DNA from: Nitratiruptor sp. SB155-2
Lineage (GTDB): Bacteria; Campylobacterota; Campylobacteria; Campylobacterales; Nitratiruptoraceae
Length of the DNA: 64,000 nt
Reading direction: 5' to 3'
Assembly: GCF_000010325.1 (NCBI RefSeq)
Contig: NC_009662.1
Location: forward strand, 1,508,501-1,572,500
Each line of letters opens with the position of its first letter. The first letter of the stretch is position 1. The translations under genes were made by a program, and so were the position numbers. The notes under the pieces were generated by a model. The model was not told the DNA's origin. It did not search any database and saw only the letters and a program-made list of their open reading frames with translations. Below, piece after piece: positions 4,027 through 13,460 of the stretch.

Positions 4027-4046
4027 TTTCGGGCCAAAGCCCGAAA
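4027..4046 (-). terminator. stem-loop after the porin gene
   Basis: TTTCGGGC and GCCCGAAA form a perfect 8-bp stem around a CAAA/TTTG loop, starting six bases after the porin stop codon. The following sequence is only moderately U-rich, so it may act as an mRNA 3' stabiliser as much as a terminator. It resembles the hairpins at 26583 and 59148. Confidence 0.6.
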
Positions 4047-4051
4047 GTTAA

Positions 4052-5246
4052 TTAGAAGTTGTAAGTTAGATATACTTGGATAGTGTTTACATCATCACTT
4101 GCAGAATCGATGTCAGTATAGATATATGCAAGTGTCGCATCAAGGCTACCGAAAGATTTGCTTGCTGTTACAGTGAATTCACTCATGCTATCATCAACAG
4201 TAGTTGTATCTACATCTGCGTATGTATAGTAAGCAGCAAAATCAGCTATATTTTCCATATTGTAAGAAGCATCAATATGGAAGGAATCAGCACCTGCTCG
4301 TCCTACCCATCCATAGTTCCACCATGCTTCTGTATATAGTTTTGTCTGTTGTCCCGCAACATTTGCAACTTGTACGGCTCCATCTTCATCTGCTGATGAG
4401 TAAGATGCTGAAACATTGAGGTTTTCCATACCATAACCCACTTTGACTGCCCATGCTGAAGCATTATCAGCGCCTGTTGCCTCTGGGTCAATATTTGCGT
4501 ACTGTACACCAAATGTAAGACCAGATGCAACTTCTTTAAGATCTACATCAGCCTGAAGCCACCATGCAGTTGCTAACTCTGCTACATTGTAATACCATAC
4601 TTGTGCAGTCGTGTTTGGAATAGCTTTTGTAATAGCACCTACTGCATATGCTCCTTCATTTGCAAATGTTGTAAAAGGATCAGTAGATGCATTTGCAGTA
4701 TTTACTATACCAGCATATGCACCAGATGTAGTTGCACCTAACATTCCTGCATTGTTTCCTTGGCCAATCCAAGCGCCAACAAGTGTTGTTTGAGGAAGAT
4801 CATTGTTCAAAACTACAGCAGCATCAAAAGTATTTTTAGCTATTGACCATTTTTCAGTGAATGCCAAAGGTGTATCAATTTCTTGTCGTCCTAGTTTTTA
4901 CTGTAGTGTTACCGATAGTTTTTGCTAGCCACGCTTCACTTACCCACCATTGATTTTGAGCATTACCTTCCCAAACATTACCAACTAAATTGTTCTCAAG
5001 GCCAAGAGTATCTAACATTGTCACAGCCAATTTAGCTTTAGCTCCATCACCAACATCAGCTGTTGCAGCTAAATCAAGAGCAACTTGACCTGCAGAGTTT
5101 GTTTGATCAAATAAATCATTATTTCCACTATCATTAGTTCCATAGTAAAGTTTCGCGTCTCCGCTAAATTTTACATTTTGTACATCAGCGAATGCACTTA
5201 CGCCCAATGCTACGATCGCAGCAAGACTCAATTTTGCCAGTTTCAT
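4052..5246 (-). pseudogene. outer-membrane porin with a one-base frameshift
   Basis: A porin-like beta-barrel protein in two frames. The first part (5246 to about 4875) has a signal peptide MKLAKLSLAAIVALGVSAFA and the barrel start VKFSGDAKLYYGTND. The second (to 4052) begins PLAFTEKWSIAKNTFDAAVV and ends TIQVYLTYNF with the terminal aromatic typical of outer-membrane proteins. The break lies in five T (A on the coding strand) at 4895-4899. Removing one base restores KLGRQEIDTPLAFTEK and a single 397-residue protein. It may be a sequencing error, a real inactivation or a phase-variable tract. A start with AAGGAG, a TATAAT box and a 3' hairpin are intact, which suggests an otherwise functional major porin. 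Confidence 0.85.
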
Positions 5247-5282
5247 TCGTACTCCTTTTTCAAGTTTGATTTGTCAAAGGGT

Positions 5283-5319
5283 ATTATATCGCCCTTATCC
5301 TTAAATTTAGATTATCTAA
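5283..5319 (-). promoter_or_regulatory. porin promoter with upstream palindrome
   Basis: TATAAT at 5283-5288 on the minus strand sits 37 bases before the porin ATG. Upstream, at 5307-5319, is the palindrome TTAGAT-T-ATCTAA, centred near where a -35 box would lie, so it could be an operator. It also lies directly after the fabI stop codon. Confidence 0.5.
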
Positions 5320-11877: not shown

Positions 11878-12507
11878 CTAATCAGTTTTTCTCCACTGCT
11901 CGATAAAAGCCTCGATCTCTTCGTTATCTCGTCTTAGTCTAGCCGCTTTTGCAATTGCCAAAATTAGCTCTTTGGATTGTTCCAACTTTTCATTGATCAA
12001 GATAAAATCAAATTGTGGCATCCACTCCATCTCTTTGAGAGCGTTTTGCAACCGTTTTTGTATCGTCTCTTCATCATCTGTCCCTCGGGTCTCCAGGCGA
12101 ATACGCAACTCCCTCATTGTCGGCGTCGTTACAAACACCGATGTCACCAAAGAAGAAAACTGGCTTTTTTTGATAGAATCGAATCCCTGGACATCGATAT
12201 CGAAAAGGACAAGTTTCCCCTCTTCTACCGCCTGTTTCACAGGTCGCAAAGAGGTACCGTAGTAGTTGCCGTGTACATTGGCCCATTCCAAAAACATTCC
12301 GGCTTCTATCTCTTTTTCAAACTCCTCTTTCGAGACGAAATAGTAATCTTTCCCATCAACTTCACCGGGACGTTTCGGACGGGTAGTCGTAGAAATGCTA
12401 AAATAGACATCAGGAATATGCTCTACAATCGTTTTAATAAGCGTACTCTTTCCCGCTCCACTTGGACCTGAAATGACAAGTAAGGCACCTTTTTGAAACA
12501 TGCTCAC
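11878..12507 (-). CDS. gmk: guanylate kinase
   Basis: Phosphorylates GMP to GDP. The P-loop is SGPSGAGKSTLIKTI. The GMP-binding segment STTTRPKRPGEVDGKDYYFV and the lid with RLETRGTDDEETIQKR are standard. The 209-residue protein begins within the last codons of the ChePep-like gene (ATGA overlap), so the two are co-translated. Confidence 0.96.
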   Translation of the reverse strand: MSMFQKGALLVISGPSGAGKSTLIKTIVEHIPDVYFSISTTTRPKRPGEVDGKDYYFVSKEEFEKEIEAGMFLEWANVHGNYYGTSLRPVKQAVEEGKLVLFDIDVQGFDSIKKSQFSSLVTSVFVTTPTMRELRIRLETRGTDDEETIQKRLQNALKEMEWMPQFDFILINEKLEQSKELILAIAKAARLRRDNEEIEAFIEQWRKTD

Positions 12508-13460
12508 TCTTTTGGAAAAGATATTTTGATTGTGATATCGAGCTGCATACCATCGAGCAGCGCCTTGAGTGAAGGCACGGACATTTTTTCCATATTTTGG
12601 CTAAGAGCTTTGACTTCTTCCTCCCGATTTTTTGGCTCTTCTATCTTTTCATGAGTAGTGAACTCTTCATGAGAAGAGGTGTCATAAGATGCAGTATCCT
12701 CCATGGATGTTTCGTGTGTTTCCACTTCTTCTGGCTCACTCTCCTCTTGGGTCACTTGCGTGAGTTCTTCGGCAATATTCGTCAATATATCTTCAGCACT
12801 CTCTTCTTGAAGAGGTTCTTCATCATTCTGGTCAAGAAGTTCATTGACTTTTTTCACCTCTTCCTCATCCAAAACACCGCTTTTTTCCATTGTCTCTTCT
12901 ACAAATGGGGGCTCCTCTTCCTCCTCTTCTACTTCCACTAACGGCTCTTCACGCTCAACTGGCTGTATTGTCGGGATTTCAGAAACTTCTTCCTCTCCTT
13001 GCATTGATTCTTCTGCAGGTATTTCCTCTTGGGCTTCTTCCTCTACAGATACTTCTTCAGGCTCCTCTTCTTCAGTAGTTTGCGCCTCCAAAACCTCTTC
13101 TTCGGATAGAGGTACTTCTTGCTCTTGTTCGCCTGTGTGCATAATCTCTTGCTGGACTTTGCGAAGCAGCTCTACAAGATCTGTCGGCAAGAAAGGTTTG
13201 GGTAGAACGAAGTCGAACTGAACTTCAAAATTTTTCGCATTGGAAGCAATAATGCCGATCTTTTTGTAATCAATCTTCTCTTTGATAAGTTCCAAAAGAT
13301 TTTCATCATACAGATCATCATCAATAATGACAACTTCATATGTTCCGCTGGGAATCTCATTGACATTTTCTATACTTTCAAGTTCGTAACCGGCTTTTGG
13401 AACACCGATGTTCATCATTCTGTTGACGACGGGATTGTTATTGATAAGTAGAAGCTTCAT
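12504..13460 (-). CDS. ChePep-like acidic receiver-domain protein
   Basis: A 318-residue protein with three parts: an N-terminal CheY-like receiver domain (about 1-105), a long Glu-rich linker (about 110-280) and a conserved C-terminal segment containing SVPSLKALLDGMQLDITIKI. This architecture and the position next to gmk-tatA-argS match the poly-E-rich protein HP0322 (ChePep) of Helicobacter pylori, a polar regulator of chemotaxis and flagellar rotation. The receiver looks degenerate: the acidic pair is replaced by asparagines (LLINNNP), while D47 (VVIIDDD) and the Lys of VLPKPF remain. The linker is unlikely to fold. The identification is from architecture and synteny. Confidence 0.78.
   Translation of the reverse strand: MKLLLINNNPVVNRMMNIGVPKAGYELESIENVNEIPSGTYEVVIIDDDLYDENLLELIKEKIDYKKIGIIASNAKNFEVQFDFVLPKPFLPTDLVELLRKVQQEIMHTGEQEQEVPLSEEEVLEAQTTEEEEPEEVSVEEEAQEEIPAEESMQGEEEVSEIPTIQPVEREEPLVEVEEEEEEPPFVEETMEKSGVLDEEEVKKVNELLDQNDEEPLQEESAEDILTNIAEELTQVTQEESEPEEVETHETSMEDTASYDTSSHEEFTTHEKIEEPKNREEEVKALSQNMEKMSVPSLKALLDGMQLDITIKISFPKE

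What the first reader, a model, noticed from the sequence alone, without database searches (positions are those of the whole stretch)
4052..5246. Porin gene broken by a single extra base in a five-base homopolymer
The signal peptide and first barrel strands are in one frame and the rest in another; deletion of one T at 4895-4899 gives a continuous 397-residue porin and restores LGRQEIDTPLAFTEK across the break. Regulatory signals are intact. It could be a sequencing error, a strain-specific loss, or a slow phase switch of a surface protein.
Basis: partly seen in the sequence, partly recalled or inferred. Interest (0 to 1): 0.6.

Follow-up and report, generated by a model that had tools for sequence, protein, structure and literature searches.

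The report
Porin gene frameshifted in one assembly
In the reference genome of one deep-sea vent bacterium, a gene for a main outer-membrane channel has one extra base that breaks it, while all 28 recovered orthologues from other genomes are unbroken and both halves still look preserved by selection, so this is most likely an error in that sequence or a very recent mutation rather than a genetic switch.

Summary
An ATG-started porin gene (4052-5246, minus strand) changes reading frame at an A5 tract (T5 at 4895-4899), inside predicted strand 5 of 18 and just before the family's most conserved motif. By exact chromosome size the genome is Nitratiruptor sp. SB155-2. The nearest relative (YY08-10 by size) has an intact 397-residue orthologue at the same place, 94% identical in DNA, with a tract one base shorter. 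All 28 recovered orthologues are single-frame. dN/dS is the same before (0.093) and after (0.084) the break, so unconstrained evolution can fill at most about 5% of the divergence from YY08-10. In a 384-kb sample this is the only split gene among 336 conserved genes. The tract is ordinary (721 A/T tracts of 5 or more in the window; none of 6 or more in the gene), which argues against a phase switch. No conserved site or RNA structure supports recoding.

Verdict: an extra base confined to the SB155-2 reference. Most likely a sequencing or clone-library artefact; the main rival is a real, very recent loss in the cultured strain. Public RNA-seq reads of the strain (PRJNA746661) would settle it. 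Interest is low.

The parts
4875..5246 (-). Upstream frame: signal peptide and first four and a half predicted barrel strands of the porin, then 6 out-of-frame residues and a premature stop (123 aa)
   Evidence: dN/dS 0.093 against YY08-10
4895..4899 (-). A5 tract (T5 on the + strand) where the reading frame changes; one base longer than in the nearest relative
4052..4894 (-). Downstream frame: remaining barrel strands, open to the normal C-terminal phenylalanine and stop; no signal peptide of its own is apparent
   Evidence: dN/dS 0.084; Porin_4 match 27.7 bits, cut-off 27
5252..5257 (-). Ribosome-binding site AAGGAG
   Evidence: read from sequence; identical in relative
5283..5288 (-). Putative -10 box TATAAT
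   Evidence: read from sequence; identical in relative; not picked up as a full sigma-70 site
4027..4046 (-). Hairpin just after the stop (8-bp stem, 4-base loop), possible weak terminator without a T run
   Evidence: read from sequence; stem conserved in relative with a one-base shorter loop; not called as a terminator

Best explanation
The gene is a conserved 18-stranded general porin, intact by descent. The frame break exists only in the SB155-2 reference sequence and is most likely not present in the living strain. It is probably a one-base insertion introduced when the 2007 genome was made, either a base-calling or finishing error or a mutation in an E. coli library clone, since porin genes with their own promoter tend to be harmful in E. 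coli. Shown here: one-base difference, restriction to one genome, undiminished purifying selection on both sides, ordinary tract, no second lesion. Inferred: that the base is not in the chromosome, and the clone-toxicity route, which rests on general knowledge of clone-based sequencing.
For: The nearest relative (G001, 1,792,750 bp = YY08-10 by size) has the intact 397-aa orthologue, same site, one base shorter, 94% DNA identity. All 28 orthologues recovered with a locus are single-frame. dN/dS is equal on both sides (0.093 and 0.084), giving a 95% upper bound of about 5% of total divergence spent unconstrained. No other lesion in 843 bases downstream. One split gene among 336 conserved genes in 384 kb, within what an error rate of about 1 in 100,000 for finished clone-era genomes (general knowledge) would give. 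The gene is strongly conserved and codon-biased (25th of 319 by DNA identity, 12th of 319 by codon bias), so a tolerated loss is a priori unlikely.
Against: No raw reads, second assembly of the same strain or proteome could be examined, so the base may truly be in the chromosome. A five-base tract is not a notorious Sanger error site. No MutL was found in the genome, so real slippage may be commoner than usual. Two other distant porin-like genes could make loss tolerable. The sequencing method of the 2007 genome could not be read (paper not held), and no held paper on clone toxicity of this family was found.
Confidence: 0.6

Rival explanations
1. A real, very recent loss-of-function mutation in the SB155-2 culture or its immediate lineage, by replication slippage in the A tract. 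The cell makes a short, probably degraded fragment and relies on other porins; it could have been favoured in culture or by a phage that uses the porin.
For: Only one lesion and no relaxation of constraint, as expected of a very young mutation; no MutL found in the genome; two intact distant paralogues; the strain carries a siphovirus and related phages are common in the genus.
Against: The gene is among the most constrained and codon-biased in the sample and unbroken in every relative recovered; there is no evidence of selection for loss, and the phage-host paper on this genus does not mention porins or receptors.
Confidence: 0.32
2. A slow phase switch: the A tract changes length reversibly and turns the surface porin on and off.
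For: The break is in a homopolymer of a surface protein; Campylobacterota are known for phase-variable tracts (general knowledge; G:C tracts noted in PMC2147049); no MutL.
Against: The A5 is one of four A5 tracts in the gene and of 721 A/T tracts of 5 or more in the window. Intact relatives carry 6-7-base tracts in this gene. The tract is not conserved at the site. Only two tracts of G8 or longer exist in the genome. Five bases is shorter than known switching tracts (general knowledge).
Confidence: 0.05
3. Recoding: ribosomal or transcriptional slippage at the A tract yields full-length porin from the broken gene.
For: A-rich run; downstream frame still constrained.
Against: No recovered relative has the shift; the surrounding RNA folds no better than shuffles (z = +1.33); efficient transcriptional slippage needs much longer tracts (general knowledge). 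The constraint is explained equally well by recency.
Confidence: 0.03

Closest known systems
Pfam Porin_4 (PF13609), Gram-negative porin
   Same: Downstream part (27.7 bits, cut-off 27) and intact relative (43.7 bits) pass the curated cut-off
   Different: Here the frame is broken; the predicted barrel has 18 strands rather than the 16 of classical general porins (general knowledge)
OprD/Occ channels of Pseudomonas and Acinetobacter, and Campylobacter jejuni MOMP (PDB 5ldv)
   Same: Predicted 18-strand barrel; best Foldseek matches are Occ channels (E down to 2.6e-17) and MOMP (E 4.8e-14), TM about 0.7
   Different: Only 12-15% identity; Pfam OprD just below cut-off (24.2 against 25) for the intact relative; Campylo_MOMP below cut-off (15.4 against 29.6) for the N-terminal part
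Single-lesion frameshifted genes of finished clone-era genomes (artefact or young pseudogene)
   Same: One single-base indel in a homopolymer, flanks under purifying selection, intact in all recovered relatives
   Different: Nothing evident; the kind is ordinary

Membership tests
Gram-negative porin (Pfam Porin_4) | Score above curated cut-off | tested here: met
   downstream part; intact relative
Gram-negative porin (Pfam Porin_4) | Signal peptide, antiparallel beta-barrel, C-terminal aromatic residue | tested here: met
   signal-like start and final F read from sequence; 18 predicted strands, mean pLDDT 82 on the intact relative
Campylobacter MOMP (Pfam PF05538) | Score above curated cut-off | tested here: not met
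   15.4 bits against 29.6 for the N-terminal part; not among the matches of 25 intact orthologues
OprD family (Pfam PF03573) | Score above curated cut-off | tested here: not met
   24.2 bits against 25 for the nearest intact relative; the fold is alike
Phase-variable contingency gene | Unusually long simple repeat in gene or promoter | tested here: not met
   longest tract in the gene is 5; ordinary for the window
Phase-variable contingency gene | Mixed tract lengths within one population | not testable with these tools
   no reads available
Programmed frameshift gene | Shift site conserved among relatives | tested here: not met
   all recovered orthologues single-frame; site not conserved
Programmed frameshift gene | Stimulatory RNA structure next to the site | tested here: not met
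   fold no better than shuffles
Established pseudogene | Relaxed selection or further lesions | tested here: not met
   dN/dS 0.084 downstream, no other lesion
Sequencing or clone artefact | Extra base absent from independent reads of the same strain | not testable with these tools
   public reads exist (PRJNA746661) but cannot be fetched here

The most novel reading that the evidence does not exclude
The five-base tract is real, and the strain either switches its main porin slowly by tract slippage in a genome without MutL or makes the full-length porin by slippage, so that a short ordinary tract acts as a regulator of outer-membrane permeability.
Probability: 0.05. Interest if true: 0.55.

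Novelty: not a real feature. Interest (0 to 1): 0.15.

Why it matters
SB155-2 is a model strain for vent Campylobacterota, and this assembly is used as the mapping reference for its own transcriptome (PMC10092412). A false break in a strongly codon-biased porin gene could hide its likely main porin from such work, and peptides from most of the protein could be missed. If the break is instead real, it is an ordinary recent loss.

Tried and rejected
Close second copy in the genome: none; only two distant paralogues. Independently separate genes in relatives: rejected, every recovered orthologue is one frame. Poor assembly overall: rejected, 1 split gene in 336 in a 384-kb sample; the two 'splits' in the reverse test are overlapping N-terminal matches and were not pursued. 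Recoding structure: none. The named genome-contig scan gave only two metagenome-assembled genomes. Papers on clone toxicity of this porin family: none of use. The 2007 genome paper is not held.

Full report
Identity of the genome. The window lies in a single contig of 1,877,931 bases. That is exactly the chromosome size given for Nitratiruptor sp. SB155-2 (AP009178.1) in PMC9723563 and PMC7728183. The nearest relative used below, G001, has a chromosome of 1,792,750 bases, the size given for Nitratiruptor sp. YY08-10. G005, G016 and G017 match YY09-18, HRV44 and EPR55-1 by size.

The observation. On the minus strand an ATG at 5246, behind an AAGGAG ribosome-binding site and a TATAAT box, opens a frame that ends after 123 codons at 4875. 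The remaining porin sequence continues in another frame to a stop at 4052. A profile of intact orthologues covers positions 1-121 in the first frame and 119-400 in the second, so the change of frame falls at the A5 tract (T5 at 4895-4899).

The protein. The downstream part and the intact relative pass the Pfam cut-off of Porin_4. AlphaFold2 on the intact relative with 24 orthologues gives an 18-strand barrel with mean pLDDT 82. The best solved relatives by fold are the Occ/OprD channels and the Campylobacter MOMP, TM about 0.7 at 12-15% identity. The break falls at about residue 117, inside strand 5, just before the most conserved motif of the family, GRQ..DTP. The broken product would hold four and a half strands and could not form a barrel (inference).

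Relatives. YY08-10 has the orthologue at the same place, one frame, 397 residues, 94% identical in DNA, one base shorter at the tract. All 28 orthologues recovered with a locus from genus, family and order are single-frame. The nearest relative does not have the A5 tract at the site, and intact orthologues carry tracts of up to seven bases within the gene.

Selection. Against YY08-10, dN/dS is 0.093 before and 0.084 after the break, and no further lesion exists. A Poisson bound on nonsynonymous changes downstream leaves at most about 5% of the total divergence for unconstrained evolution. The break is therefore either very recent or not in the chromosome.

Background rate. In a 384-kb sample of this genome, 336 conserved genes of YY08-10 were compared; this gene is the only one split between two frames. 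Within the window itself it is the only uncompensated single-base indel found well inside a gene conserved in both genomes. The porin ranks 12th of 319 by codon bias and 25th by DNA identity, as expected of a highly expressed, constrained gene; expression itself was not measured here. One frameshift in this much coding sequence is about what general experience of finished clone-based genomes would give, and a porin gene is a likely victim of selection against intact clones in E. coli. This last point is background knowledge and was not supported by a held paper.

Switch or recoding. The gene has four A5 tracts and none longer; the window has 721 A/T tracts of five or more and 74 of seven or more. 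The genome has only two tracts of G8 or longer. Nothing marks this tract as a switch. The genome shows no MutL by the Pfam PF01119 model, which may raise slippage rates in general. The RNA around the site folds no better than shuffled sequence and no recovered relative shares the shift, so programmed recoding is unlikely.

Conclusion. The most likely cause is an artefact of the SB155-2 reference (0.6), then a genuine very recent loss (0.32), then a switch (0.05) or recoding (0.03). 'Not a real feature' is chosen for novelty because the base is in the deposited sequence but is judged more likely than not to be absent from the organism; if it is present, the case is an ordinary young frameshift. 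Public RNA-seq reads of the strain (PRJNA746661) can decide between them.

Noticed in passing
G000:C1:1409360-1409368 (outside the window; locus L048): One of only two tracts of G8 or longer in the genome (G9); a better candidate for a slippage-prone tract than the porin tract. The gene it lies in was not examined.
   Followed up: no
whole genome G000: No match to the MutL family (PF01119) although 11 of 14 control genomes match.
   Followed up: partly
G000:C1:520930-522078 and 1821474-1821902 (loci L041, L042): Two distant, intact porin-like paralogues of the broken gene; their expression would bear on whether loss is tolerable.
   Followed up: partly
window 12504-13460: A gene with many frame-compensated insertions and deletions relative to the nearest relative, concentrated in one stretch at about 12600-12840; probably a fast-evolving linker.
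   Followed up: no
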